This document shows, in pieces, positions 2,230 to 58,428 of a DNA stretch of 64,000 nt (positions are counted from its first letter, which is position 1; each line of letters starts with the position of its first letter). Origin of the DNA: Termitomyces sp. T153 (Eukaryota > Basidiomycota > Agaricomycetes > Agaricales > Lyophyllaceae); the NCBI GenBank assembly GCA_018296165.2, contig JACKQL020000001.1:434001-498000 (forward strand), read 5' to 3'. The notes under the pieces are model-generated. The model was given only the letters and a program-made list of their open reading frames with translations, was not told where the DNA came from and ran no database searches. A program made the position numbers and the translations under genes.

Positions 2230-3985
2230 TTAGGCAAGAGTACCCTGATTCGTCTTTTAGTTGCAGATCTACCAGAAACATAGACCGACGTACCATGGGG
2301 TCCCATGGCGGGAGCACGACCTTCTCTCCAGACTCATAGACTTCGACAAGGACCTTGGGAATGTACGCTTTGGGTGCGACGACCTGATAGACAAACCTAT
2401 TCGCTTCCACGTGAGAAGGAACGAAAGCGGAAATTGTGTGCTAGCTCACTGCTCAAACCACGCATCGGTCATGATGAAATACCCTTTGTCACCATTCGCG
2501 TCACCCCAAGAGTTCTCAACTTTGTAACGGACAGGCTTGCCGCTGTCGTCCAAGTGGACGCCCGATATGACCATGGCATGCGTCATGGCGGATTCATTGA
2601 CCTGAAGGCGCTCAGCTTTGGTCAGACCCAAAGTAATGTCAAATGCGAGCTCGTATTGGAACAGTGCAGGATCCATGATGCCGCCAGCCGTGTCTGAAAA
2701 TTTGCCGACATCACAGCCAAAGAAGACGGGCTGACCGGCCTTGATCATCTGTGAGAAAAACATTATTTATTATTACCAAGACAAAACAAGGAATGAAATG
2801 ACCTTGACTATAACAGCCTTAAGATTTTCAATCTCAGTATTGACATCTAGAACACGTATGAGTTATGAAACGCGCTGATTCAGCGAAACTCACAAAGGAC
2901 GGGACGAGCTCCCCAGATGTTTCCAAGTTGGTTGACGGTGTAAAGCTTGGTGTACGAATTACGGGGATCGTTAATGAGAGACAATGACTCGGAGACGGGA
3001 TAAGGCTTGGACACAAATGCCTTGGCGAACTCAAGAGGAGTGCCATTCCATTTACCAAATTTCCCATCGGCATCTGTGTACTCCCAGGTAAATGTCTCAT
3101 CAGCGGTAGGAGGAACACCCAGAGTCGCGGTAAGGATGATATAGATTTCCTTGACAAGATCCTCTTTCTTGGCACGGAGAGTGGAGACAAGGACGTCCTC
3201 AGGGACAAAAGAAGCACGTAATGAAGAAGAGAGACGGCGTAAGATGAGAGCATGCTCGCGAAGTTTGGTCTTGACAAGATTATTCAGAGGGCCAGAGAGA
3301 GATGAATGAGTAGATTCAGGGAAAACAGCCTGAGGAACCAAACCGTAGCGCTCAACAAGATTGACGATCATGTCCCATTGACCACCATCGCTGATGAGGT
3401 CAGCAGACAGGTGGCTAACGAGACGGTCGTCGATGGGGAGATTAGCGTTTTGTATGGAGAGCTCAAGATAGTAGTTGGCCTTGTTGAGTTTATCCCAGAA
3501 GAAGAGATAAGACTATACACAGCATGCGGTTAGGAGAACGTTCTGTGTTTTGAAGTAGCGTGGCTTACTTGAGATAATTCAAAGTCACTAATCTTAAGAG
3601 CCTTCATGATGGAGTAGCGGAAGACATTAGTAGAGGCAAATATCCAGCAGCGGCCACTGCTCTTCTGGTTAGTGATGGGACCAGTCTTGAAGTCAATGAC
3701 ATTGTTGAAGACATGAACATCGGAAGTACGGGCGGTACGAGATGTGAGAGCAGTGGAAAGATTGGAGTGCTGGAGGACTGTGCGAGCCAGAATAACCTTG
3801 GGATCACTGGCTGCATCAGACTCCCAAGAGGCAATGGTGGACTTTGTAAGAGAGCCGTCTGAGGACGAGGGTGAGACGACATGGAGGGAATCCATGCCGG
3901 CCACAAGATCTGGGGACAAGATGCGCTTCTCATCGTGCGCGATGGGGATGGGGGAAGGCTGCTGCTTGGAAGGAGCAGACCCCAT
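2230..3985 (-). CDS. LAP3: Bleomycin hydrolase / cysteine aminopeptidase (peptidase C1B)
   Basis: Six exons (3985-3569, 3512-2894, 2846-2803, 2748-2450, 2396-2294, 2244-2230) splice to 498 residues, a little longer than the family norm. The papain-type triad is visible: Cys113 in QKSSGRCWIFAS, His417 in MTHAMVISG and Asn439 in KVENSWGD. The family forms a cytosolic self-compartmentalised hexamer with aminopeptidase and homocysteine-thiolactonase/bleomycin-inactivating activity. The last exon is only 15 nt and supplies GTLA-stop after LPPWDPM. This matches the conserved family C-terminus, whose terminal residues trim into the active site. ATG 3985 is preferred over the in-frame ATG at 4009 because it gives MGSAPSK, a textbook N-myristoylation signal (Gly2, Ser6, Lys7). 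Introns are 47-56 nt. The gene is divergent from the arylesterase gene at 4064. Confidence 0.95.
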
Positions 3986-4063
3986 GGTGGAATGAGGCGA
4001 AAGGACCAATCGATCAACACTGTCTTATTCGGGTCACGTCACGAGGGGTTGCCATCTGCGGTC
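3986..4063. promoter_or_regulatory. Shared divergent promoter gap (78 bp)
   Basis: Only 78 bp separate the start codons of the minus-strand peptidase and the plus-strand arylesterase. Both genes must therefore use overlapping core promoters, or start transcription inside each other's coding region. I see no TATA box. Confidence 0.55.
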
Positions 4064-5481
4064 ATGTCGCGTCTCGTCGCTCTTCTCGTCGCTCTCCTTG
4101 CCGCTGCCGCCGCCTTTTATCAACTCACTCTCAAGCCCATTCTCACAACAGCTGGCCTCTGGCGCAGAGTCGAGTCTCTCGCCAATGACCGCTGCACTTC
4201 AGTCCCTAAGCTTCAAGCCTGTGAAAGTATTTTGGCATTTACCTCATGTTCCCGTCTTCTACTGACCATACCACAGAGATCGTTCTGCACCAACCTACAG
4301 GTATCTTGTACCTCGCATGTTCTCTGCCATCCAGTAGGACATTTTGGTCCCCTGCCGTGAACCGCCTCGATGCAGAACATGCATCTTTTGACGACTACGT
4401 TGCCACTTACGATCCAGCCTCGAACCGCGTCACCCGCCTCAAATTCCTGAATTTCAACAGTACACGAGGTTTCTCATCCCATGGCATGGACATCGTCCAG
4501 TCTTCCTCAAACTCTGATGAACTGTTCGTCTATCTCATCAACCACCGTGCACCCCTTGTCCATCAGTCCGCCCGCGAAGTGGGTGCGGACTCCACTGTCG
4601 AAATTTTTAGAACGGTAATAGACAGCGACTCCCTGATCCATATCCGTACTGTCCAAGACCCTATCATTATCTGTCCCAACGACGTTGTAGGGTACCCGGA
4701 TGGTCAGAGCTTCTATTTCACTAATGACCACGGCGAAAAAGTCGGCCTTGTGCGTCTCACTCATTCCGGGTATCATCGGTAGATGGTAACTAAGTATGTT
4801 AACAGGTACGTGGACTCGAATACTTTGGCCGAAAATCGTCTTCTGTTGGGTATTGTCATGCACAGACCGGATGCAAACACGCAATCACCAATATGCAAGG
4901 AAATAACGGGATTGCAAGAGCCCAAAATGACAGTTTGTATGTTGTCAATTCTCTGGCCGGTGTGATCAACATCCTCGAGAGACAGTCAGACGATACGCTT
5001 GTCATATCAGATACTATCCCGACAGGTGAGCATTACTTAAGGAGGTGCGAGTCTTGACTCGGCCGAACTTAGGCCATATATGTACCTAGATCGAAGCCTG
5101 GACAATGCTTCCATAGACTCGGACGGTGCTCTCTGGATTGCAGGTGAGCCTGCTTCTTCATTGACAGCCGGTAAACTCGATTGACTTCTGCTTAGGCTTT
5201 CCTGACGCCTTGACTTTCTTGTTCAAGCATTTCCCAAACCCTTCCATACCAGCACCATCCTCCGCATTACGTATGACCCTAAACACAGGCTCATCTTCTT
5301 TTTTCGGAGAGAAGTACAAGTTGGAGAAGGTATTTTCGAGCTGACTGCGGAAAAAGTTCGGGGTTGATGTGATGTGTATGTATTGCAGGTTTTTGAGGAC
5401 AGCGGAAGTATAGCATCAGGCACGACCTCTGTAGTACATGACGCCCAGAGACATCGCCTGTTCTTGCATGGTATGTTTTAA
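4064..5481 (+). CDS. Paraoxonase-like arylesterase (calcium-dependent beta-propeller)
   Basis: Exons 4064-4226, 4277-4749, 4806-5025, 5090-5143, 5196-5329 and 5389-5481 give about 378 residues, usual for this family. Residues 5-20 are a hydrophobic N-terminal anchor/signal (ALLVALLAAAAAFYQL). Key paraoxonase positions are recognisable: the His pair (His123 in SSHGMD, His144 in YLINHRAP) and calcium ligands Asn204 (FTNDH), Asn246 (GNNGIA) and Asp290-Asn291 (LDNASIDSDG). The family hydrolyses lactones and aryl esters on a six-bladed propeller, usually at a membrane or secreted. The 3' end is uncertain. Reading on gives LHGMF-stop at 5479-5481. A last intron from 5471 to an acceptor near 5566-5571 would add about 40 residues ending near 5690, but with no family resemblance I could see. 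Confidence 0.88.
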
Positions 5482-5937
5482 TTTCCAGGTTTGCACGAAC
5501 AAGGCGTTGAAGCTATCCTTGAAAAGGTCCATTAGCACCTCATTTAAGCATATGTTTGACTTAGCACTAGCTGGACTTACGTACGTAAGAATCCAAAGCC
5601 GTGTTTTGCCGAGATGTCGGCCGATGGCGCCTTCCTACGAAAATGAGTTTACCGTGGCGTACAGTATTCTTGTCTATTTTTTGTTGTAGAGGGAGATATC
5701 ATAATAGTGACACATTGTTCCCGACATGATTATGCTCTTGATTGTGCTAACAATATCAGATACAAGTCAGACCCAGTTGACTACTCAAGGACTCGGGAGA
5801 CCCGCGACAAGAATAGAATATTCAACATGAAATCGTACAATGTGTATTATGTACGCATGTACATGTACATCTGTCGACAGTCCTCTGCCAATCGTCTGAT
5901 TCACCGTATGTAAATAGTCAGAAAGCAAGAGCTAATT
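5482..5937. other. 3' flank of the arylesterase gene; boundary of island 1
   Basis: It holds the possible alternative last exon (about 5567-5690) and then AT-rich sequence without coding signal. Repeat DNA begins close to 5938. Confidence 0.45.
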
Positions 5938-6488
5938 GACATAAAGGAAATGAGGAGTGAAGTGAAAAATGTCACTATTGCTAGCCTAACTTGCTAGATA
6001 GTAACAGAAGGTTGCTGGGTAATAGAAGGAGAAAGGGACAGAGACAAAAGAGTCACTAGAAAAGGGGAACTAAGTGATAGAAAGGGAGTAGGGAACAAGA
6101 AAGGAATGAAAGTTTATGTGAACTGGGGGACAAATGCAAACTAGTCACTAGCTATAGTCACTAGCATTGCTAAGTTGTAATAACCTAAGGGCACCTGCAG
6201 TTGGCAACCATGCTAGATTGAGTATGAAGTCATCAAGACTTGTTGCTAAGTCATTGGCAATGACAAAAGAGAGCAATGGATATATGAAGCTGGTAAGCTG
6301 AGAGCTAACAGGGAGAATGATACTCTGTTGGTTAGTTGCTTTTGTCTCTCTGTACAGGCAGTATTTATACTGTTCATAGGTATAGTATTTAGAAAGGAAA
6401 TATTAGTTGCCACCAGCAATGGTGTCTGCCAAAGTGTTTATGTTACATACATATTGGATGTCAGTATAGTAACCAAGTATATGTATGC
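5938..6488 (+). repeat. Diverged LTR-B fragment
   Basis: The sequence follows the LTR-B consensus from the GTCACTATTGCTAG region through GGCACCTGCAGTTGGCA to the ACAGGCAGTATTTATACTGT region. It lacks both LTR ends. It directly abuts the next LTR-B copy at 6489. Confidence 0.65.
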
Positions 6489-7205
6489 TAATGTGCTCTT
6501 ATGCTGCCTAGTGCCATGCAGGAAACCTAAAAGGAGGACCTAACACTAGTCACTAGATAGGGTAGCTGGCAGTAGGAAGTTAATAGTTGAGGGCAAGTCA
6601 GTAACCATCCCAGAGAACTAGAGTGAAAGTTGTGTTGTGGAGTGAAGTCGAAAGAAGTCGCTATTGCTAGCGGAAGTCGCTAGTGACGATAAGGAGAGAA
6701 AAAGAGTAAAGACCAGTAACATCGCTAAGACAAAGTGCCCTCTTAATGGAGGTAGTGGAGAGTGAGGGAATAGGGTAGAGACAGGGAAAGGCAGTAACAG
6801 GAAGACTAAAATCAAGGGACAAACATAAACTGGTCGCTAGCCATAATTGCTAGCATTGCTAAGTCGGATTAACTAAAATAGGCACCTGCAGTTGGCACCA
6901 CACTAAGTCGAGGTTGAAGTTGAGAAGGCTTATCATTAAGCCTGGGTCAAAGGCAATAGAGGAGCGAAAGAAGCAAAGTGAAATCTCTTGCTGGTAAGCT
7001 CAAAGATAGCAGTTCTCTGATTGTTCCCCCTTTCTTTAATGTCTATGTACAGTCACTATTTATACATTTGAAAGTATAGTATGGGAAAGTAAACAAATAG
7101 GCACCACTAGTGATGGCATCTGTCACTGTGTTTAGGGTGCATACAAGGCATCAGTCTGTAACTAAGTGAAAAATCATAGGTGAAGTCTTGGCAGCACCTA
7201 ATTGC

Positions 7206-8394
7206 TGTCATGACCCGTACCCTGGACCCCCACACATTGTCCAGCAACCTCCCATTCCCCAAAGCCCCCAATGCTCCACCAAACTTCTGCCCATGCCCCA
7301 TGCCTATTTTGATTAGCCCCAATGCACCCTTGGCTAACTCCAACGCCTCCCTGGCTAACTCTGATGGCCCCCTGGCCAACTTTGACGCCTTCCCTGCAGC
7401 CACTGACACTTACCCTGGATCTCCCAAACCCCGAGAACCACCCCCACTGTTCCTGATCTTCACCACCCATCATCAACTCAACACCCTGGCTCCTCCGACC
7501 CATTCCGAAGTATCACAACAACCTTGGGGCGACCTGTGTTCCCAAATGATCCCATCAACATATCAACGTGGCCCAACCCTTGATTGCAACTGACACCCAC
7601 CAACTCCGTCGAGCTCCGCCAAGCCCCGCCGCCACAGCCGATGTACTCTGAAGTTCTCCAGTAGTCAGTATATAAGATGTCGAGTAGCTCTTTGTATGCT
7701 AGTCTTGATGTTACCTACCTATTGTTAATGTTACCTATGGTCTGATTGTTTTCTTTCTCGTGTTCTGTGTTCCGTGTCTTGTTTTCCTTACTCTCAGTCT
7801 CCTGGTCTTATCTCAGTCTCCTGGTCCTATCTCAGTCTCCCGGTCTTGTCTTGTCTCCATTTTGTTATCATTCTCATTATCATTTCGTATCTCCACTCGA
7901 ATCTATTCTTGTTCCATCTTGACCCCATTTCATTTTGTCCGACGCTGTCTTGGTGACTCTGTCCGGCCATTGTGCCCAAGTCTTCCTCAACCTTAACGAC
8001 CTCATGAACTCCATGATTACGATTATGAACCCTGACACTCTTCCACCAGATCCAAACCTCACTCTTCGCTTGGTTCCGGACTCCATCAACCCCAATTGAT
8101 CTTCCATCAAACCCCAACTCCGCTCCCATTGATTGCGTAGCCTCCTACCCCTTCGCGTCTGTGAATCTCCCATACAGTCTTCTGCCTGAACCCTGCCAAG
8201 CCCATCCCGTTTCCTCGCAATCCGACTTCTCCGGACCTCCCCGGACCTGTTCAGATCACACTCCACCAACTATCCGCGCAAGCAACCAGTGTCCAGAACA
8301 CTTTTGAGTGTCCGGTTGCCAGTGCAAGGGGATCATGCCTGCCTAGTAAGGACTTGCCAGTGTACTGAGCCCCCATCGTCAGCGGAACCTGACA
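7206..8394 (+). mobile_element. Solo LTR-A with 5-bp target-site duplication
   Basis: This 1,189-bp LTR starts TGTCATGACC and ends CCTGACA. ATTGC lies directly before it (7201-7205) and directly after it (8395-8399). It sits inside an LTR-B copy. Two other LTR-B copies, at 51989 and 58058, show the same flanking sequence with a single ATTGC and no insert. Confidence 0.95.
7669..7676 (+). promoter_or_regulatory. TATA box of LTR-A
   Basis: TATATAAG follows a conserved CCAGTAGTCAG in the solo LTR. The same site occurs in the other LTR-A copies (22382-22389, near 28157 and near 61360). It probably marks the start of the R region of this family's transcript. Confidence 0.6.
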
Positions 8395-8790
8395 ATTGCA
8401 AATGAAACCAAAAAGTAACAAGTCCGATGTCAATACCTGAAGTGTAGATGCTGTTCAAGTATGTTGGTAAGCTTGGCAAAAGAAATGATAGTAAAAAGGT
8501 ATGCATCTGATAATTTGTCCATATATAGTAAGAGAACGCTGTTTTGTTGCTAGAGTTGCTAGGGTCACTAATAATTGTCACTAGGGAGGGCCTAGGCCTT
8601 GATAATTTAGGCCCAAGTTCCAGACTCCACGTGATGTTTCTCGTGATTGGTAAGTCTCATGCTTTGGTCCAATCCTTGGGCTAGGTCTTGTGTGCTGAGT
8701 GTTGTGACTTGTGCTGGATTCAAGATAGTCAGCTGCCGCTAAGTCCAAAATGCCAAAAAAATGGTGCTCAGCGATAACTGGGGCTCATTA

Positions 8791-9229
8791 ATGCATTGTC
8801 AATATAATGTGTAAAAATTGTCAATCACAAGAAAAGAGCATTTCCAACATCAATATCTGAAGTGTAAATGCTATTCAAGTATGTTTATAAGCAAGACAAG
8901 AAGAATGATAAGTAAGAAGTCACACAGCTTTCAATATATCCCTTTTGGAGAGGAGGCAGTATTGTTGCTAGGTAAGATCACTGGCAATCATCACTAAGAA
9001 AGGCCTTGGCTTTATCATTCTAGACCCAAAGTCCAGACTCCACATGATGAGGCTTGTGATCCAGAAGTCCTGTAGTTGCTAAAATCTTGTGCAAAGGCTA
9101 CATTGTTCCAGGCTTTGGGGCTAGACATCATGTGACTTTTGCATGGTCATGTGGAATCTAGTCAGATGCTGTCCAATCAGAAATGCCAAAAATGGTGCTC
9201 AGCAACAATTGAGTCTTATCACTGGTAAG
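8791..9229 (+). repeat. Diverged partial LTR-B copy
   Basis: From about 8850 the sequence follows the 3' half of LTR-B (CTGAAGTGTAAATGCTATTC, then CAAGTATGTTTATAAGC, ending AATGGTGCTCAGCAACAATTG...CTTATCA at about 9220). It has many C-to-T type differences. The 5' half is missing. Confidence 0.65.
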
Positions 9230-21709: not shown

Positions 21710-21917
21710 TGATGTGCTCCTATGCCACCTAGTGCTGTGCAGAAAACCTAAAAAGAGAACCTAACACTAGCCACTAGATAGGGTAGCTGGCAGTAGGAAG
21801 TTAATAGTGGCAAGTCAGTAACTGTCCCAGAGAATGAGAGCAAATGTGGGTGTGAAGTGTGTATTTGGAAGGATCACTAGTGCTAGCCTAAGTCACTAGA
21901 TGGTAACAGAGAGTTGC

Positions 21918-44536: not shown

Positions 44537-46318
44537 TTGTCCTGTATATATTTGACTAGAAACAAAGGCTACAATATTCATATTGACAAACAAGCCATGC
44601 ACTTTTGGTTAAATGGAAAAGAGTTATTCTGTGCTACAATCAACTCCAATAATTCTGCTTGTTTGGATGGTTGTACTGCACCTATTTCGGAGTCTGCTCA
44701 TCTTACCAGCACATTACCACTTGATCTGACACTTTGGCATTGCAGATTTGCTCATCATAACTATGCTGATGTCAAAAAGATGATCAATAACCAGTTGGTA
44801 GTTGGTTTGGACTTGAATTCTGCTGCAAAGCCTGATCCCATCTGTGAACCTTGTTTGGCTGGCAAAATGCGCTCTAATCCTTTTCCTTCTTCCAGTAGTC
44901 GTGCATCTAAACCATTAGAATTGATCCACAGTGATGTACATGGCCCTCTTCCAGTCACTGCAATGGGGGGCTATCGTTATTGGATCACATTCATTGATGA
45001 TTGCACAAGCTTTAAAGCTGCTATGGCTCTGAAGAAGAAAAGTGAAGCATTCAATGCCTTTAAGACACTCAAAGCTTATGCAGAGAATGCTCTAGATGCC
45101 AAAATCAAGGCTATACAAGATGATAAAGGTGGAGAGTACATGTCAAAGGAGTTTATTGCATACACTGATGCTTGTGGAATCAGAAGGAGGCACACAACTC
45201 ACAACAGACCTCAGCAGAATGGTGTTGCTGAGAGAGCAAATAGAACGCTCTCTGAGGACATCACTGCAATGCTCAATGAATCAGGTCTACCAGCCTCATT
45301 CTGGGCACATTGCCTTCATGCTCAGATTCACATTCTGAATCAACTTCCAACTGCATCTCAGTCAATTACTCCTTATGAGGGATGGTACAAGCATAAACCA
45401 AATGTCTCTTATCTCAGAGTCTGGGGATGTAGAGCATATGTCTATATACAAAGGGATAAGCGCAACTCCTTACAGTCTCACATGGAAAAATGCATCTTCA
45501 TTGGATATCCTCCTGGTTATAAAGCATGGTTATTTTACAATACTGAAACCAAGAAGACTGTAATTTCTGAAAGAGCAGAGTTTGATGAATGCTTATTGCC
45601 TGGTTTGTGCTTAACTAGGCCAGTAATACCTCCTACACCTCCTTTACTACCTGTGGATCTATCAGTCCTACCTGAAAGTGCATCCCCCAATCAAAGTGCA
45701 GTGTTTGAGTTACCTGCTCTTGAAAATGAAGAGGAAGAACGATTTGTTCTCCAAGTGCCAGCTATACCTCCTGCACATCCTAAGCTTCCTATACCTGCAC
45801 GCCCTATAACACCACCACCAGCTGCTCCAGCACCTCCTAGACCTCGCCCAAATCAAGCTAGACACCATTCAGCTCAGCTACCAGATCAACCACCAGCTCA
45901 AATTCCTGCTCCTCCATCACCTCCCTTTGCTCTGAGACGCTCTAAACGCAATGTACAGCCTCCAAGAGATTGGTGGGTAGTACAACATCAGGAACCAGTC
46001 CAGGACAGTTCTGATGAGGAAGAAGAGCAAGTCCAAGCTGAATTGGATCTGGGGTCTGATCTTGAACCTGATCCAGAACCACTTGACCCTGGTTTTGAGG
46101 ATGTTCAATTTGCTGGAATGGCTACTTCTTCAGATCCTAGGACATTCAAGCAAGCTATGAAGTCTGTGGATGCTGAAAAGTGGTATCAAGCTGCAGTTGA
46201 TGAGTATATCTCATTGGTAGCTAATGGGACTTGGGAGGAGTGTGACTTGCCTGAAGGCAAGAAAGCAATTGGCTGTGGATGGGTGTTTCGCATCAAGCGC
46301 AATGCAGATGGCAATTGA
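44537..46318 (+). CDS. Integrase and N-terminal RT of copia element C1
   Basis: This 593-codon open stretch contains the HHCC zinc domain (LWHCRFAHHNYADVKKM ... ICEPCLAGK). The DDE core follows, with Asp in IHSDVHGPL, Asp in IQDDKGGEY and Glu in NGVAERANRT. Then come the copia integrase C-terminal motif (YLRVWGCRAYVYI, CIFIGYPPGYKAW), a Pro-rich linker, and the start of RT (FKQAMKSVDAEKWYQA, GCGWVFRIKRNADG). It stops at 46318 because of a one- or two-base indel; the RT continues in another frame. There is no natural start codon here, since it was part of a polyprotein. Confidence 0.88.
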   Translation: MSCIYLTRNKGYNIHIDKQAMHFWLNGKELFCATINSNNSACLDGCTAPISESAHLTSTLPLDLTLWHCRFAHHNYADVKKMINNQLVVGLDLNSAAKPDPICEPCLAGKMRSNPFPSSSSRASKPLELIHSDVHGPLPVTAMGGYRYWITFIDDCTSFKAAMALKKKSEAFNAFKTLKAYAENALDAKIKAIQDDKGGEYMSKEFIAYTDACGIRRRHTTHNRPQQNGVAERANRTLSEDITAMLNESGLPASFWAHCLHAQIHILNQLPTASQSITPYEGWYKHKPNVSYLRVWGCRAYVYIQRDKRNSLQSHMEKCIFIGYPPGYKAWLFYNTETKKTVISERAEFDECLLPGLCLTRPVIPPTPPLLPVDLSVLPESASPNQSAVFELPALENEEEERFVLQVPAIPPAHPKLPIPARPITPPPAAPAPPRPRPNQARHHSAQLPDQPPAQIPAPPSPPFALRRSKRNVQPPRDWWVVQHQEPVQDSSDEEEEQVQAELDLGSDLEPDPEPLDPGFEDVQFAGMATSSDPRTFKQAMKSVDAEKWYQAAVDEYISLVANGTWEECDLPEGKKAIGCGWVFRIKRNADGN

Positions 46319-47640
46319 GCGCTTTAAAGCTAGACTTGTTGCAAAGGGTTATGCACAACGTCCTGGCATTGATTATAACAAAGTTTTTGCACCAACATTT
46401 CAACCTGCATCTTTGCGCCTCATCCTTGCTATTGCTGGCATAGAGGACATGGAATTGCGCTCTGTGGATGTCACTTCTGCTTTCCCCAATGGAGATCTGG
46501 AAGAAGATATCTATATGCTTCAACCAGAGGGGTTTCAGAATGGAAAGAAGGTACTCAGGCTCAAGAAGTCACTTTATGGTCTAAAACAAGCAGGCAAGCA
46601 GTGGAACAAGAAGCTACATGGAGCATTATCATCAATGGGCTTCAAAAGACTTGAATCTGACCGCTCTATCTATCTCTATATCAGAAGAGAAGTCAAGATC
46701 ATTGTGCCCATCTATATTGATGACATTACACTTGCTTCAAAATCTACTGCTGCACTTGACTCTGCTGTTGATGACCTCAAAAAGCACTTCAAAATCTGTG
46801 ACTTGGGCCCTTCCCACTTCCTTCTAGGTGTTCAGATACACAGAAACCGCTCTAAACGCTCTATTTCACTCTCACAACGTCAATACATTGTTGACATGTT
46901 GGAGCGCTATAAAATGAGTGATTGCAATCCAGTATCTACTCCAATGACACCTGGAATCAAACTCTCTAAAGCCATGACACCACAGAATGAAGCAGAAGAG
47001 GAGGAGATGAGCAATGTGCCTTATTTAAATGCAATTGGTTCACTGCAGTATTTGGCTACTATGACAAGGCCAGATATTGCTTATGCAGTCTCATGCCTTG
47101 GACGCTTCAATTCCTGTCCAGGACCCAAGCATTGGGCTGCAGAGCATTTATTACGCTATTGCAAAGGCACAATGGATTATAGACTCCATTTTAATGCTGA
47201 CACTGGCATTCAACCCTTTACTACATTCTGTGATGCCTCACATGGAGATTGTCCTGATTCCGGCCGCTCTACTGGTGGTTATCTAACTACAATTGGTGGT
47301 GGAGCTATTGGATGGAGTAGCAAGCTTCAATCAGTTGTTGCTTTATCCACAACTGAAGCAGAATACATTGCTGCTGTAGAAGCTGGCAAAGAAATCATCT
47401 GGATGTGGAATATTCTACATGAAATGGGATACTCTTCTACTGCTCCATCTCCCATGCTGATTGACAATCAATCTGCAGCCAGTGTTACCAAGAATCCAGA
47501 ACACCATGGACAAATGAAGCATCTTGACCTCAGCTTCTATTGGCTCAGAGATGCAGTTGATCAGCAGAAACTCATTCCTCAATTTTCCTGGAATCTATTC
47601 CAGATCTGCTCACAAAATCACTTCTTCTACCCAAAGTGGA
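46319..47640 (+). CDS. pol: Reverse transcriptase and RNase H of copia element C1
   Basis: The frame opens at IERFKARLVAKGYAQRPG. RT motifs follow: VFAPTFQPASLRLILAIA, SVDVTSAFPNGDLEEDIYM, LKKSLYGLKQAGKQWNKKL, and the catalytic YIDD in PIYIDDITLAS. RNase H has FCDASHGDCPDSGRSTGGY and ALSTTEAEYIAA. The enzymatic motifs appear intact. The normal C-terminus is replaced after about 47600 because of the deletion into the LTR. Only the frameshift at about 46312 separates it from the integrase part. Confidence 0.9.
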
Positions 47641-47651
47641 ATTCTGCAGGC

Positions 47652-47814
47652 CAGCTCTATTCAGTTCAATCATGGATTCTCCATGTGATTCACTATTCAA
47701 CATTATAGTATATATATGGATAATGTAGAAGCCTGAAGTTCCCACTCAGTTTCTGACTCTGGACTTTCAGCTTTAGTGACTATTCAGTCCCCTGTGCTTT
47801 GCCTGTCTTCAACA
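47652..47814 (+). repeat. Truncated 3' LTR of C1
   Basis: AGCTCTATTCAGTTCAATCA to TGTCTTCAACA matches the 3' half of the 5' LTR. The first 120 bp are deleted. Confidence 0.85.
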
Positions 47815-51598: not shown

Positions 51599-52407
51599 TA
51601 CAAATGTAAACTGGTCGCTAGCCATAGTTGCTCATGCCACTAAGTTGGAATAATGCAAATAGGTGCCTGCAGTCGGCACCACACTAAGTCGAGGTCAAAG
51701 TTGAGAAGGCTTGTCACAAAGCCAGAGTCAAAGATGAGATAAGGGAAAGAGAGGCAAAGTGAAATCTTTAACTGGTAAGTGCAAAGATGGTGGAGTTGTT
51801 CGATGGGTCAATAATTTGATGACGTAGTGTCTATGTACAGTCAGTATTTATACATTTCAACATATAGTATGTGAAAGTAAACAAATAAGTACCACTAGTG
51901 ACAGCATCTGTCACTGTGTTTATAGTGCATACAAGGCGTCAGTCTGTAACTAAGTGAAAAATCATAGGCGGAGTCTTGGCAATGCCTAATTGCTAATAAA
52001 ACCAAAAAGAAACAAGTCTGATGCCAACACCTGAGGCATAGACACCATTCAAGTATGTTAGTAAGCTTGGCAAAAGAAATGATAGTAAAAAGGTATGCAT
52101 CTGATACTTTGTCCATATATAGTAGGAGAATGCCATTTTGTCACTCAAATCGCTAAGGTCACTAATAATTGTTGCTAAGGAGGGTCTAGGCCTTGATGAT
52201 CTAGGCCCCAGTTCCAAACTTCACGTGATGTTTCTCATGATCAATAAGTCTCATGGTTGCTAAAGTCTCATGCTTCGGTCCAATCCTCTGGCTAGATCTC
52301 CTGTGCTGAGTGTTGTGACTTGTGTCAAATTCAAAGTAGTCAGCTGCTGCTAAGTCTGAAATACCAAAATGCCGAAAATGGTGCTCAGCGGTAACTGGGG
52401 CTCATCA
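51599..52407 (-). repeat. 3' LTR of B1 (truncated)
   Basis: The inner end reads TGATGAGCCCC on the minus strand, as at 58428. The outer part is lost at the junction with G3. It contains an intact, uninserted ATTGC site at 51989-51993. Confidence 0.9.
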
Positions 52408-52418
52408 TCCTCCCCCAT
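52408..52418 (-). other. Polypurine tract of B1
   Basis: The minus strand reads TGGGGGAGGA directly before TGATGAG of the 3' LTR. Confidence 0.75.
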
Positions 52419-52493
52419 ACTGAAATATTGACTGTCCTCAGTCAACCTCAAAGTCACATGCTCGATCGCTTGGTTTGTGCGCCTGAGAGATTC

Positions 52494-52502
52494 AAATAAA
52501 AA
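52494..52502 (+). promoter_or_regulatory. TATA-like box of the antisense gene
   Basis: AAATAAAAA lies about 80 bp before the antisense start codon and about 90 bp from the LTR edge. The decayed copy has TATTTATAAG at the comparable place (about 11090). Confidence 0.35.
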
Positions 52503-52580
52503 CAGCTGGCAGTATCGCTTGAACTTCATCACCCCACTTCCTTACTATCTAATCTCCTCCAATATCTCAATCTTATCGCT

Positions 52581-54585
52581 ATGTCCAATCTTGCGTCTCA
52601 ACTTGAAAAGATAACAATGGCCCATGCTTTTCTTGATCAGGTCGACAGACTGCTCACAGTAGCCTGTGTGTCCTTAGCAAAGGATCCTTGTTTGGCAGTC
52701 ACTGCCATCTTCCAGATGTGGCTGCAATGGTTCAAGACTGCGGGGAGTGGAGTTGAGTGGCCAGAGTTGGCGACTGTCAAGAAGGAGTGTCGCCAACTGT
52801 ACAAGTGGTACAAGGGGGAGGAATGGGTTCACCCATTTGATGTTCATTTTGTAAGTTTCTTCTTTTCTTCTTAGTGACAGTTCTGACAAGATCGCTAGGC
52901 TTCGGTCTATCCTTCCTTGGAGTTCTTAATGGATGACCTTATGGCGGGAATGACGGTAAGTGCCCTGGCTGTCGCTAGCACTAGCAACACCACTAAGGTA
53001 TGTCAGCTTTTTGAAGACTTGTTGCCAAATGACCAGTTGTTCTTCCAGCACCCGGTAGGTGCATTAGCAGTGGCGAGGGGGGAGGGACAGAGTGAGGGTC
53101 ATGAGGGTGAGGAGGCGGCAAATTGTGGGGACATTCAAGAGGCGGGCCCCTTGACTCCCAAGGCTGTGGCTGGTGGCATTGCTAGGGGGTTGGCAACATC
53201 ACCAAGACTGGCGACAACCCCGAGGAGCAAAGGGAAGGGGAAGGGAAAGGCATGGGAAGAGGAGGATGAGGATATTGAGGTGAGTCCCTTTTCTTCTTTT
53301 TTGCTAACTCTTGACAATGATCGCTAACTTTTCTTGCAGGACCAAATTGAAGAAACGTTTACCAACAAGCGCTTGGCAACACTCCTTCATTGGCAAAAGG
53401 CCTCAACAGTGGTGGACACTGGACTGGGAGCCGGGGTGAAGTTAGAGAAGGCCAAGGGGAAGGTAATGGTGCCGCTAGAGAGGCGACAACAATATAAGCA
53501 CATGCAAGGAACGGTAAGCACTCAGTGATTGTTTCATTCTTTTGTTGCTAACAACTTCCTCTAGTGTGACCACTGCTGGGCCAACAACAACCCCAAGGGC
53601 TGCTGGTACCCAATGGGGGTCCAGCCCTGCTATCGTTGTGACAGCACAAGAAAGAGCTGCTCGCACAGCGGACGGTTGTCGAGGAGTACTAGCAGCAAGT
53701 TCGCTAAGAAGATAGCAATGAAGGCGGTGTCGGTAAGGAACACAAGGGCTTTTGTGAAGCAGCAGAGGGAGTTGGTGAGGTGAGGGGAGCCCATCAAGGT
53801 CAAGCATTTGAGCTTGATCCTACCGACGTCGCAGGAGGAGGCTGTAATTGGAGGTGGTGGAGGCGCTAAGGTGAAGAGCAGGGAGATGGTGGAGAGCGAC
53901 AAGGATGGCAGCAAGAATGATAGCGACGGCGATGTGCCCCTGGCACAGAAACAAGCAGCAAGTCCTGTGTTGGTCACTAGCGCTAAGCAATCTCAAACAG
54001 TCGCCAGCGAGGAGGGAGAAGGGGATGTGGAGATGGGGGAAACAACTCCCTTAGCAATGGTTGCTGAGGTGGAGCGGGAGGCAAGCGGCATGGAGATCGA
54101 AGGTGAGGAGGAGCTCAAAGTCATACCAGTCACTGCTGAGGAGGAGGAAAGGGGTGAGGAAGTCGAAGTCCAATGACGGGTAAGTTCTTTCCTTTTGCTA
54201 GCTTCTTGGCCGCTAACTGCTTTGCTAGGGAACCTGGAGCAACATGCCTTTGTGCCAGGTTGGTGACGATGAGCTGGAGTGGCTGGGCAAGGACCTTGGT
54301 TGGCCGACACCACTAACGTCAGCGGCATCGCTAGTGGATTTCGACAAGAGGGCAGTGGGAGTGGAACGGCAGTTCCAGAGGGAGCTGGAGGCTGCCAGGG
54401 AGGAGTTGTTAGCGGTGCGGGCTTGTTACACTGTTGCTAAGCAGACATTGGCGACACTGGCGGGATATCAGTGCAACTGTCAGGCCTTCTTGGCCTGGCA
54501 AGAGGAGAACAACGTCGGAGAGGGAGATTGGGAGGAGGCAGAGGCAATGGAGGTGCCTGACGATGACGCTGACCTTGACGCTTAG
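52581..54585 (+). pseudogene. Antisense gene of B1: cysteine-cluster and coiled-coil protein
   Basis: Seven exons (52581-52850, 52899-52955, 53007-53279, 53340-53513, 53565-53774, 53835-54179, 54229-54585), all joined in phase 0 with GTAAGT/GTGAGT-type donors, make 562 codons. The N-terminal 90 residues are helical (MSNLASQLEKITMAHAFLDQ ... WVHPFDVHF). A basic patch (RSKGKGKGKAWEEEDED) follows. Exon 5 starts with a Zn2Cys6-like cluster, C-x2-C-x8-C-x8-C-x2-C-x6-C (CDHCW, KGCWYP, CYRC, KSC). Then come an acidic stretch and a C-terminal coiled coil (RQFQRELEAAREELLAV). One in-frame TGA (54174-54176), one change from CGA, breaks it. AATAAA follows the stop. A DNA- or chromatin-binding role is an inference from the cluster. 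Confidence 0.72.
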
Positions 54586-54604
54586 CAACAGTCGCCTCTC
54601 TGTA

Positions 54605-54610
54605 AATAAA
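54605..54610 (+). terminator. Polyadenylation signal of the antisense gene
   Basis: AATAAA 20 nt after the TAG stop, in a T-rich context. Confidence 0.45.
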
Positions 54611-54979
54611 TTTTTATTTTTGTTAGTATTCAGACATAGACCAGCCCCCTTAAGGGGCTCCAAAAGAAAATGTATAGTAATCTTAGCAACAATTTCAAAA
54701 CTCAGAGGAAACAGAAAGAAAAAGCAAACAAAATTAATAGGGCGTACTAGCAACTGTTGCCTAACGCTAGCAACGTCTGAAGGCAAACGCTTAGTAGATC
54801 ATCATGGTGAAATACCTCTAGAGGCGTGCCAAGCACTGGTGACAGAATAGCCAAACGCAGCATCAAAACAAGAAAGTAGTAAGGTAGAGTGTCTGTGAAA
54901 CACCTTTTAACTAGAGTAACAAAATGAAAGAATAACAAAAATGAAAGGACTCAATGTTTTTGTAAGCTATTGTTGACTG

Positions 54980-55019
54980 TTTTTTTTTTTTTTTTTTTTT
55001 TTTTTTTTCTTTTTTTTTT
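54980..55019. repeat. Homopolymer T tract (29 T, C, 10 T)
   Basis: It lies between the convergent 3' ends of the antisense gene and the integrase frame. Read on the minus strand it is an A tract about 70 nt after the integrase stop codon. Confidence 0.9.
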
Positions 55020-55089
55020 CTGGATAATAGAGATGGGGATAATAAGAAACAAGGCAGAGTCAAGATAAGTCGCTAAAACTTAGCAACAG

Positions 55090-56325
55090 TTAGATTTCTT
55101 CTTCACTGGTGATGTTGCCGGTATCGTCGTTGTCAACAAGTTCAGTTTGCTCCAGTTCTCGGAGTCGAGAGGTATCGATGTCAAAAGCGTTGCTAGGCAC
55201 TGTTATGTGTTCTCTAGCAAAATAAGGGATTAAGCAAAAGGCGGCAATGGGGCAATGTAGTACTGAGCCATCTAATTCACAAATAATGTAAGCACCTCCA
55301 CAGTTGCAAGAGATTACCACTAGTGGGCCTAGGTAATGAGGCTTCATCTTTTTCTTATGTGTTACCTCAATTTTAGTATTCCTCATCAGTACGAGGTCAC
55401 CTGTTTTAAAGTTGTAATTGCAGATCATAGCGGTGTGTTCTGTCTTGAAGCGAATGGCTGCTAAGTGGTGAGCGCTAAGCACTTGGCTGTGAAGGTGGTC
55501 AAGATCCTCTTGGCAACGCTGAAGATCAATTGCTCGGCAGGCTATGAGGTCAGTTGTCAACAACAGCGAGTTTGGTGGCAGTTGCAGATATGTCACTTCT
55601 ACTATGTTGGCAGGCAGGAGAGGGTGGGTACTGGTTGTCGCAAAGTAAGGGGAGCAACCCATCCGCTTGCATACTGTAACATGTTCTGACCAAAAGACAG
55701 AGTAGGTAGCAGTACTCCACCTAGACTGATCACCATCAACTGCTTTGAAGAGGGCTTGGCAAACATTGAAATAAGGCCGCTTGATTATTCCATTAGTGCG
55801 CTTATTGTAACCAGAGATCCGGATGTGGTGCAAGTTATACTTCTTCGCCAAGTAGGTAACCGCCTTTAGGATTGGGGGTCCATTGTCTGTAACAATTTTG
55901 CTAAGCGCTCCCCAACAACAAATGACATCCTCATACAGCCACTTAGCAATGGCTTCGGTGTTCTCTCTGGCAAGCATACGAAACTCAGGATAATGAGTCA
56001 GTGAACAACGTCCTTGAATGATGTATTTGAACTTATTGGAAGGTGGCATGAACATGGTATCAACATATATCTTGCTGAACAAGGGTGCTGGCATAGCGAC
56101 AGTTGGTGGAATGAGAACCTTGGTCAGCTGATGTATCTGGCAGAGATGGCAAATCCAAAGGTACCACACAATATCAGCGCTAACTTGAGGCCACCAAAAT
56201 TGTTCTAGGAGGGCTGAGCAAGTAGCAAAAAGACCTCTATATTCCAAGTTGTCATGCATAGCCTTCAAGACTCGTAAGCGGCTAGCAGTGGGAACAAACA
56301 GCTTGTGAGTGCCATCTCGATTTCT
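55090..56325 (-). pseudogene. Integrase of B1 with altered catalytic residues
   Basis: The frame starts within THKLFVPTASRLRVLKAMHD. The zinc domain keeps CHLC, but the second His is Tyr (HDNLEYRG for H-x4-H). The core has Asp in KIYVDTMFMPP and Asp in IVTDNGPP. The third catalytic residue is Lys instead of Glu in TNGIIKRPYFN (AAG for GAG). The C-terminal region (MKPHYLGPLVVISCNCGGAY) and an acidic tail are complete. The 390-residue open frame is otherwise intact. Its upstream neighbour is Gag rather than RNase H. Confidence 0.85.
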
Positions 56326-57004
56326 TTAATGACAAATGAATCCCACTGGTGCCATTACTGGTCTTGGTCATAGAGGTGTCCATTCCCTTTAAAACCCACT
56401 TAGCGCCTTCGAAGACTTGATCAACGTCATAAGGGTCCTCAGGATGGTGGTCAGAAAGAGTGATTTTGAGACGGCAAATGATTTTAGACCATAGCAATGT
56501 GGGGATACCTTGTTGGAACAAGCGGCATTCCTCATTACGATAGAGTTTGCTGTTAGCGAGTAACCATCTTGCAATATGTTGGAAGTCCCTGTAGTAGTCT
56601 GAGAACCTTCCCAAAGTCGCTAAGCCACTGTTGAATGTCTGGTTGACCAATCGTTCCAGATCGCCAAGGTTATAACAAGCACTAGCGTCAGCACCAGAGT
56701 ACAACCTAAGCACTGCCGCTTTCCGTTCCTGGTAAGTGTATGGTCGAGGAATGTTGTTGCTGATAATAACATTGTTGCCAAATTCAGGTAAGCCAAGCCA
56801 GGTTTCTGCCATGTCATAAGGGACATATTGAGCCACATATTCTTTCTTCTGCATGTCATCAGCAATGCCGCAGTCAGCAAAGAGATATTCCAGTTCCTTG
56901 AAGTATTGGGGGAGTTCCCTAGGGCGACTCTCATCCCATTTAGGTGCAGTTGTGTCATTGTGTGGTGGCATTCTAGCACACCAAGCGGCGGAGTCATTGT
57001 TCAT
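56282..57004 (-). pseudogene. gag: Gag of B1
   Basis: MNNDSAAWCARMPPHNDTTA, then PRELPQYFKELEYLFADCGI, AETWLGLPEFG, AVLRLYSGADASACYNLGDL and YYRDFQHIARWLL make a typical Agaricomycete gypsy capsid. The frame also continues upstream of this ATG to about 57320 (ARAKHCLENLVESPP) with one stop, so the true start may lie nearer the LTR. At its end Gag runs into the integrase in another frame. The nucleocapsid knuckle is gone. Confidence 0.82.
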
Positions 57005-57334
57005 GTTAGCAATTGATGGATTTAGCAAAAGGAGGGGGTTAGTTGGTGATGAAGGGATAGATTGGGCTTCTGGGAAGAAGATTGAATCTGTTGGGGTCAA
57101 AGGTGAAAGTGGTGCATCGAGGAAACTTTCAATAAAGGTGCCCGGAAAATTGGCAAGGATTTTGCTAACGTCACGAAGTTTTTTAGCAGCTTTGAGTTTG
57201 TTGGCAAGAGGTCAAGGATGGGTTGCTGGCAAAGAATGCTGAGGGGTCAAAAATGAAGGCGGAGGTGATTCAACAAGGTTTTCCAAGCAATGTTTTGCTC
57301 GAGCTCTGGTTTCTGGTGGAATGGTTAACTTCAA

Positions 57335-57355
57335 AGTCCCTCGTGGTGGGCTCCA
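57335..57355 (-). other. Putative primer-binding site of B1
   Basis: The minus strand reads TGGAGCCCACCACGAGGGAC, three or four bases after the inner end of the 5' LTR. It has the TGG start expected of a tRNA 3'-end complement. The tRNA is not identified. Confidence 0.5.
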
Positions 57356-57358
57356 AAA

Positions 57359-58428
57359 TGATGTGCTCCTATGCCACCTAGTGCCATGCAGGAAACCTAA
57401 AAAGAGGACCTAACACTAGTTACTAGATAGGGTAGCTAGCAGTAGGAAGTTAATAGTTGAGGGCGAGTCAGTAACTGTCCCAGAGAACTAGAGCGCAAGT
57501 TGTGTTGTGAAATGAAGTTGAAAGAAGTTACTATTGCTAGCTGAAGTCGCTAGTGACGATAAGAAAGAAAAATGGGTAAAGACAAATGAAGTCGCTAAAA
57601 CAAAGCAAACTTGTGACAGTGGCAGAGAAGGTAAAGGGAAGGTGGTAACAAGGAGACTAAATCAAGGTACAAATGTAAACTGGTTGCTAGCCATAGTCGC
57701 TCATGCCACTAAGTTGGAATAATGCAAATAGGTGCCTGCAGTCGGCACCACACTAAGTCGAGGTCAAAGTTGAGAAGGCTTGTCACAAAGCCAGAGTCAA
57801 AGATGAGATAAGGGAAAGAGAGGCAAAGTGAAATCTTTAACTGGTAAGTGCAAAGATGGTGGAGTTGTTCGATGGGTCAATAATTTGATGACGTAGTGTC
57901 TATGTACAGTCAGTATTTATACATTTCAACATATAGTATGTGAAAGTAAACAAATAAGTACCACTAGTGACAGCATCTGTCACTGTGTTTATAGTGCATA
58001 CAAGGCGTCAGTCTGTAACTAAGTGAAAAATCATAGGTGGAGTCTTGGCGATGCCTAATTGCTAATAAAACCAAAAAGAAACAAGTCTGATGCCAACACC
58101 TGAGGCATAGACACCATTCAAGTATGTTGGTAAGCTTGGCAAAAGAAATGATAGTAAAAAGGTATGCATCTGATACTTTGTCCATATATAGTAAGAGAAT
58201 GCCGTTTTGTCACTCAAATCGCTAAGGTCACTAATAATCGTCGCTAGGAAGGGTCTAGGCCTTGATGATCTAGGCCCCAGTTCCAGACTTCACGTGATGT
58301 CTCTCGTGATCGATAAGTCTCGTGGTCGCTAAAGTCTTGTGCTTTGGTCCAATCCTCTGGCTAGCTGCTGCTAAGTCTGAAATGCCAAAATGCCAAAAAT
58401 GGTGCTCAGCAGTAACTGGGGCTCATCA
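57359..58428 (-). repeat. 5' LTR of B1 (complete, 1,070 bp)
   Basis: On the plus strand it begins TGATGTGCTCC and ends GGGGCTCATCA, with 5-bp inverted tips. It is the reference copy for LTR-B. It has a single ATTGC at 58058-58062 and no LTR-A insert. Confidence 0.93.

What the first reader, a model, noticed from the sequence alone, without database searches (positions are those of the whole stretch)
52581..54585. Seven-exon antisense gene carried by an LTR retrotransposon
Between the integrase and the 3' LTR of element B1, a spliced gene runs against the element's own direction. All its introns are in phase 0. It has a Zn2Cys6-like cysteine cluster and a coiled coil, a TATA-like box upstream and an AATAAA downstream. 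Introns show it was not acquired by sense-strand retroposition; an antisense gene keeps its introns during the element's RNA-mediated replication because they are not spliceable in that orientation. It may control the element or compete with its transcript.
Basis: partly seen in the sequence, partly recalled or inferred. Interest (0 to 1): 0.88.

Follow-up and report, generated by a model that had tools for sequence, protein, structure and literature searches.

The report
Intron-bearing backward gene in fungal retrotransposon
A mobile element of an apparently termite-farmed fungus carries, written backwards between its own genes and its end repeat, a gene in six predicted pieces whose protein sequence has been conserved by selection; the protein likely binds a short DNA word that is scattered over the element, which would let the element resist silencing by its host.

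Summary
The antisense gene is real and belongs to the element. The window copy is a decayed member of a Ty3/gypsy-type family. Of 37 aligned copies, 34 keep every exon a multiple of three, 172 of 185 introns keep GT..AG, and nine copies are intact, six of them near-identical. Between subfamilies dN/dS is 0.14-0.17 in the antisense frame; pol gives 0.06. Of 40 integrase copies scored, 39 have the gene adjacent and one a remnant. Every homologue listed is from Termitomyces. New: the element is strewn with TCGCTA, 77 sites against 7.0 expected, in LTRs, introns and coding sequence; three-site clusters lie mostly in this family. The protein likely binds this word and counters CpG methylation, as VANC proteins do in plants; binding, expression and demethylation are untested. 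Antisense genes at this position are known in plants and in Botrytis (Boty brtn), so this is a new variant of a known kind.

The parts
57359..58428 (-). 5' LTR of the element (the element runs on the minus strand); a PBS-like stretch follows internally at 57337-57355
   Evidence: alignment to an LTR of the young element; letters read
51606..52407 (-). 3' LTR, truncated at its outer end
   Evidence: matches part of the LTR only; 97% identity over 697 bp to the 5' LTR
55090..56268 (-). remains of the 3' part of pol with the integrase zinc-binding domain
   Evidence: PF17921 E 3.3e-7; aligns to the pol end of the young element
56329..57100 (-). remains of the 5' part of gag; element positions 3050-7194 between gag and pol are missing in this copy
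   Evidence: no Pfam match
52408..52417 (-). polypurine tract next to the 3' LTR
   Evidence: sequence, conserved in the copies shown
52428..52445 (.). inverted repeat TTGACTG-TCCT-CAGTCAA between LTR and gene; possible control site (inferred)
   Evidence: intact in 31 of 37 copies
52581..52850 (+). exon 1 (start codon; predicted helical N-terminal domain)
52899..52955 (+). exon 2
53007..53279 (+). exon 3 (eight of 12 database rows use an alternative in-frame intron 2)
53340..53513 (+). exon 4
53565..54179 (+). exon 5: cysteine cluster, then charged low-complexity region; premature TGA at 53781-53783 and 54174-54176 in this copy
53565..53660 (+). cysteine cluster C-x2-C-x8-C-x8-C-x2-C-x6-C
54229..54585 (+). 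exon 6 with stop codon; predicted coiled coil about 54319-54510
54605..54610 (+). AATAAA poly(A)-like signal
51606..58428 (.). array of TCGCTA/TAGCGA words (18 in this element) and their CpG-decay form TAGCAA/TTGCTA (30)

Best explanation
The finding is a decayed copy of a conserved gene, predicted to have six exons, that a Ty3/gypsy-type LTR retrotransposon, apparently of Termitomyces, carries antisense between integrase and 3' LTR; its protein likely binds, presumably as a dimer, the word TCGCTA that is spread over the element, and would thereby keep the element's own copies free of CpG methylation and open to transcription. Shown: exon frames and splice sites kept across copies, introns present in recently moved copies, purifying selection on the antisense frame, the gene or a remnant beside each of 40 integrase copies scored, and the motif array with its conservation and its CpG decay in old copies. 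Predicted: gene model and coiled coil. Inferred: expression, zinc binding, nuclear location, DNA binding, the match between protein and motif, and anti-silencing. Because the gene is antisense, its introns should not be spliceable from the genomic RNA, so they survive reverse transcription.
For: Gene: 34 of 37 copies keep every exon a multiple of three while lengths vary, 172 of 185 introns GT..AG, 9 of 37 intact; dN/dS 0.143 (bootstrap 0.098-0.195) against 0.063 for pol of the same pair of elements, 1.1-1.7 in the other two frames of that strand between intact copies of the two young subfamilies; 39 of 40 integrase copies have it 396-824 bp away, the other a remnant. Motif: 77 against 7.0 +/- 2.5 in 200 dinucleotide shuffles, the top hexamer; in LTRs, 5' UTR, gag, pol, exons and introns (31 per kb), above all 300 synonymous-codon shuffles (19 vs mean 3.6, 23 vs 5.2, 8 vs 1.9); unchanged in 32 of 43 sites against 480 of 1020 control CpG hexamers (L026 to C45); 36 of 44 genome-wide three-site clusters lie within 11.5 kb of a gene copy, against 3 matches in all for the reversed pattern (28 of the 44 are in the near-identical young copies). 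Old copies turn TAGCGA into TAGCAA/TAGTGA and lose CpG down to 0.06 of expectation, which suggests that the host methylates these elements.
Against: No binding, expression or methylation data. Pfam finds no known DNA-binding domain; the cysteine region is modelled with low confidence (mostly pLDDT under 50) and no solved fold matches. The motif might serve a host factor. The 248-bp spacer between pol and gene has none. Motif conservation shows no excess for L033 to L043 (8 of 17 against 0.49) and a small one for L026 to L036 (11 of 20 against 0.43), and some other hexamers are as well conserved (CGCCGC 8 of 9). No diverged family with a different motif could be read, so co-evolution of protein and motif is untested. 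VANC motifs sit in noncoding repeats; here they are also in coding sequence.
Confidence: 0.45

Rival explanations
1. The protein is a transcriptional regulator of its own LTR, like HBZ of HTLV-1: made from near the 3' LTR, it binds motif clusters in the LTR and tunes sense transcription, without acting on DNA methylation.
For: Motif clusters in each LTR (11 sites per LTR); inverted repeat beside the gene intact in 31 of 37 copies; predicted coiled coil. HBZ is antisense, spliced and down-regulates the 5' LTR (PMC10186651, passages).
Against: Motif density in 5' UTR, gag and introns is near or above that of the LTR (11.3, 8.1 and 30.9 against 9.7 per kb), which LTR control does not need.
Confidence: 0.25
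2. The protein helps replication itself (nuclear import, integration targeting or packaging), as suggested for plant antisense ORFs, and the motif belongs to another factor, of the host.
For: Conserved between subfamilies and with homologues in several Termitomyces strains; basic and acidic stretches would suit nuclear entry (sequence).
Against: Does not explain why the motif array is largely confined to this family.
Confidence: 0.2
3. Only the antisense RNA matters (competition with, or silencing of, the sense transcript); the ORF is incidental.
For: Antisense RNA effects are discussed for other elements (PMC7264820, passages).
Against: dN/dS 0.14-0.17, in-frame indels, splice sites kept.
Confidence: 0.03
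4. A host gene fragment captured once and carried as a passenger.
For: It has introns.
Against: Beside 39 of 40 integrase copies scored (remnant in the other), under selection between subfamilies, and homologous families in several Termitomyces strains.
Confidence: 0.02

Closest known systems
brtn, the antisense gene of Boty-like retrotransposons of Botrytis cinerea (and Sclerotinia)
   Same: A fungal LTR retrotransposon with an antisense gene between pol and 3' LTR. Seen only as a reference title and short passages in PMC8365987 and PMC7264820; the original paper (Virology 2011) was not available.
   Different: Ascomycete host. Whether brtn has introns, a cysteine cluster or a motif array, or is related to this protein, could not be checked; no brtn sequence was at hand.
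Antisense additional ORFs between pol and 3' LTR of plant elements (Grande gene23, RIRE2, Retand with TRP28)
   Same: Position, orientation, presence in most copies, supposed nuclear or DNA-binding role (PMC7264820, PMC11963269; passages including abstracts).
   Different: No word beginning with 'intron' occurs in either text; here five introns. No TRP28 match; element-wide motif array.
VANC anti-silencing proteins of VANDAL DNA transposons in Arabidopsis
   Same: Element-encoded protein and a short motif at high density in its own element (PMC5735166, passages).
   Different: VANDAL is a DNA transposon (recalled); VANC binding and demethylation are shown there and untested here; motifs there lie in noncoding tandem repeats. 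The proteins were not compared directly.
HBZ / APH-2 antisense genes of HTLV
   Same: Antisense, spliced, expressed from the 3' LTR side (PMC10186651, passages); HBZ has a bZIP, hence a coiled coil.
   Different: No bZIP match here; retrovirus of primates; five introns here.
Fungal Zn2Cys6 transcription factors (Zn_clus; features recalled)
   Same: Six cysteines, and a predicted coiled coil elsewhere in the protein.
   Different: Spacing x2-x8-x8-x2-x6 instead of x2-x6-n-x2-x6-8 (canonical spacing recalled); no Pfam match.

Membership tests
Antisense aORF of LTR retrotransposons (pol-3' LTR) | Lies between pol and 3' LTR, opposite to gag-pol | tested here: met
Antisense aORF of LTR retrotransposons (pol-3' LTR) | Present in most copies and conserved | tested here: met
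   39 of 40 integrase copies scored, remnant in the 40th; dN/dS 0.14-0.17 between subfamilies
Antisense aORF of LTR retrotransposons (pol-3' LTR) | Own transcript | not testable with these tools
   no RNA data
Boty brtn | Sequence homology to the BRTN protein | not tested
   no BRTN sequence at hand; homologue searches listed Termitomyces rows only
Retand TRP28 proteins | TRP28 (PF04195) domain | tested here: not met
   Pfam scan of the intact protein: one weak unrelated family; not among the 25 shown of 28 families for 64 homologues
Zn2Cys6 transcription factors | Zn_clus profile match and canonical cysteine spacing | tested here: not met
   no match for the intact protein, not among the 25 shown of 28 families for 64 homologues; spacing read
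VANC-like anti-silencing system | Short motif dense in the own element, rare elsewhere | tested here: met
   6 in 53.5 kb of window outside the element (CpG-poor), none in two 4-kb stretches (one of them is nearly free of CpG and so uninformative)
VANC-like anti-silencing system | Protein binds the motif and removes methylation | not testable with these tools
   needs EMSA or DAP-seq and methylation data
HBZ | bZIP domain | tested here: not met
   no bZIP match
Ty3/gypsy retrotransposon (carrier) | Protease, RNase H before integrase, two LTRs, PBS | tested here: met
   RNase H 592-695, integrase zinc-binding 875-931, protease in ORF1; LTRs 99.7% identical; PBS-like stretch. No RT or integrase-core profile was listed at E up to 0.1

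The most novel reading that the evidence does not exclude
A retrotransposon encodes, on the opposite strand and with introns that only that strand can splice, its own sequence-specific anti-silencing factor, and has rewritten its body, coding regions included, into an array of that factor's CpG-containing recognition word: a VANC-like system invented independently in a fungal LTR element.
Probability: 0.35. Interest if true: 0.92.

Novelty: new variant of a known kind. Interest (0 to 1): 0.72.

Why it matters
Antisense genes of LTR elements have been reported in plants and in Botrytis, and the review seen here says their function is not known. This family offers a conserved protein, intact young copies and a candidate recognition word in one genome, so a function becomes directly testable by a binding assay and methylation maps. 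If the anti-silencing reading is right, it would bring to an LTR retrotransposon a kind of self-protection that the paper read here describes for a plant DNA transposon, and would give a sequence-addressed tool against methylation in a fungus. It also shows how a gene with introns can travel through an RNA intermediate: by lying on the other strand.

Tried and rejected
Sense-strand ORFs opposite the gene: between subfamilies, sense frames 0 and 2 give 1.0-1.7; frame 1 shows a weaker mirror (0.26-0.32; 0.35-0.43 within the close group), as expected from codon complementarity. Within the close L033/L036/L043 group the antisense frame gives 0.26-0.38 and some wrong frames 0.61-0.74, so the signal there is weaker. 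Antisense-RNA-only and captured-host-gene readings: rejected on selection and on presence beside the integrase copies scored.

Pfam, PDB sequence and fold searches gave no known domain; a weak DUF3716 match in 5 of 64 homologues (best E 0.052) was not seen in ten proteins looked at singly, and a paper search for DUF3716 found nothing. A search for a second element family with a different motif ended at L045, an old relative (gene 48% identical) whose enriched words TAGCAA and TAGTGA fit CpG decay of the same motif. A genome search with the pol protein, to find relatives lacking the gene, did not complete. Homologue searches scored only the candidates sharing most words, so absence outside Termitomyces is not shown.

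Rows dropped: of the places, three fragmented copies (C161, C118, C41) were not aligned; many further copies seen were not fetched. The 37 copies were found by the gene itself, so their carrying it proves nothing; the integrase search is the fair test. Three of 37 copies with frameshifts were left out of the dN/dS set, in which I compared 12 chosen pairs.

Full report
What was checked. The window is G000:C1:434001-498000 of a 72.4 Mb, 307-contig genome. A DNA search with 52581-54585 found about 40 further places at 79-85% identity, most of them near-complete (only 40 of 265 candidates were scored). I aligned 37 copies (36 fetched plus the window). Six of them (L025, L026, L029-L032) are practically identical, and a second young group of nine is 92-98% alike.

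Gene model. In the young copy L026 the gene has six exons (270, 57, 279, 174, 612, 357 nt) and five introns of 49-57 nt, all phase 0, giving 582 residues. In the window the exons are 52581-52850, 52899-52955, 53007-53279, 53340-53513, 53565-54179 and 54229-54585. The window copy has TGA at 53781 and 54174. Across 37 copies, 34 keep every exon a multiple of three although total length varies (1692-1770 nt); intron lengths vary at introns 1, 3 and 4, and in one copy at intron 5; 172 of 185 introns are GT..AG (my tally; ten of the thirteen losses are the donor of intron 1); nine copies have no premature stop. Intron 2 is uncertain: eight of 12 database rows (P0001-P0005, P0011, P0046, P0061) read as if they used another intron 2. 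Both versions are open in 37 of 37 copies; the segment that only my version codes varies mainly at third positions (11, 14, 65 minority letters at the three codon positions), the other less clearly so (44, 21, 52). Alternative splicing is possible.

Selection. Between intact copies of the two young subfamilies dN/dS is 0.14-0.17 in the antisense frame and 1.1-1.7 in the two other frames of that strand; one sense-strand frame shows a weaker mirror (0.26-0.27). A bootstrap for L026-L033 gives 0.098-0.195. Within the closer L033 group it is 0.26-0.38. Pol of the same two elements gives 0.063, both pol frames being open over 1284-1285 codons. Introns differ by 17% for L026-L033 (44 of 257), about as much as third codon positions (118 of 581).

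The element. L026 has LTRs of about 1.13 kb, 99.7% identical, a gag-protease ORF overlapping a pol ORF with RNase H before the integrase zinc-binding domain, and then the antisense gene. So a recently moved copy holds all five introns. The window element has lost element positions 3050-7194 and part of its 3' LTR. Of 40 integrase copies scored, 39 have an antisense-gene match at 396-824 bp on the opposite strand; the fortieth (L046) keeps pieces of it. Only the best 40 of 265 candidates were scored, so this is a sample.

The protein. Three overlapping searches list 69, 25 and 67 proteins; each row names a Termitomyces strain; one J132 fragment is 100% identical over 70% of the query. That is the basis for naming the host. 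Relatives in T32 and T159 share 28-36% identity with P0001. By eye, 7 of 12 rows keep all six cysteines of C-x2-C-x8-C-x8-C-x2-C-x6-C; the others have lost some of them. The AlphaFold2 model of P0001 (64 sequences, mean pLDDT 54.9, pTM 0.28) has a helical N-terminal domain (1-116, moderate confidence) and a long C-terminal helix (493-556, pLDDT mostly above 89) typical of a coiled coil; the cysteine region is not modelled with confidence. No solved structure matches. Pfam gives no DNA-binding family.

The motif. The hexamer TAGCGA/TCGCTA occurs 77 times in L026 with one LTR counted, against 7.0 +/- 2.5 in 200 dinucleotide shuffles, and is the most enriched hexamer (found by scanning, so chosen after the fact, but z is about 27). 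It lies in LTRs (9.7 per kb), 5' UTR (11.3), gag-protease (8.1), pol (6.2), antisense exons (5.1) and introns (30.9), on both strands; none in 1.1 kb of flank and none in the 248-bp spacer between pol and gene. Shuffling synonymous codons gives means of 3.6, 5.2 and 1.9 where 19, 23 and 8 are seen, above the highest of 300 shuffles each, so protein coding does not explain it. Between L026 and the C45 copy (pol plus gene) 32 of 43 motif sites are unchanged against 480 of 1020 other hexamers with CpG at the same offsets (Fisher p 3e-4; in the other direction 32 of 39 against 480 of 959; overlapping hexamers are not independent). The excess is absent for L033 to L043 and small for L026 to L036. 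In old copies the word turns into TAGCAA and TAGTGA as CpG is lost (0.06 of expectation in L045). A genome-wide pattern for three sites at short spacing gives 44 matches against 3 for the reversed pattern; 36 lie within 11.5 kb of a gene copy, 28 of these in the near-identical young copies; five of the other eight resemble the LTR strings by eye. Of two 4-kb control stretches neither has it, but one is nearly free of CpG.

Interpretation. The gene is a selected part of the element, shown by dN/dS and by its presence beside the integrase copies scored. What it does is inferred: a cysteine cluster and a predicted coiled coil, in a protein of an element filled with one short, CpG-containing word, point to a self-encoded DNA-binding protein. 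The CpG decay of old copies suggests that the host methylates these elements, which gives a motive for an anti-silencing function as in VANC of Arabidopsis (PMC5735166, passages). LTR regulation as by HBZ (PMC10186651, passages) and a role in replication are the main rivals. That fungal DNA transposons may carry demethylating enzymes against C-to-T hypermutation is argued in PMC12730594 (passages), where no retrotransposon with such an enzyme was found.

Known or new. [quoted passage not shown] passages) and in a fungus: brtn of Boty in Botrytis and Sclerotinia (passages and a reference title in PMC7264820 and PMC8365987; the original paper was not available). So neither the position nor a fungal host is new. 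The paper searches made listed no paper that I recognised as describing a many-intron antisense gene with an element-wide motif array; I read passages of only a few of the papers listed. I call it a new variant of a known kind.

Noticed in passing
52956-53051: Two alternative in-frame versions of intron 2 are open in all 37 aligned copies; eight of 12 database rows read like the other one. Possible alternative splicing.
   Followed up: partly
52428-52445: Inverted repeat TTGACTG-TCCT-CAGTCAA between polypurine tract and antisense gene, intact in 31 of 37 copies.
   Followed up: partly
6487-8794 and 21710-21840: Further LTR fragments similar to this family in the window.
   Followed up: no
44537-47708: A plus-strand retroelement polyprotein in two overlapping long ORFs (593 and 494 aa), Copia-like to my eye; not searched.
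   Followed up: no
L045, L048: Extreme CpG loss in two stretches (0.06 and 0.01 of expectation), while another 4-kb stretch (L049) has 0.97.
   Followed up: partly
L026:2202-2332: The open frames of gag-protease and pol overlap by 131 nt in different frames, as for programmed frameshifting.
   Followed up: no
Termitomyces T32_za158 proteins P0070-P0135: A large, separate expansion of the same protein family in another Termitomyces strain.
   Followed up: no
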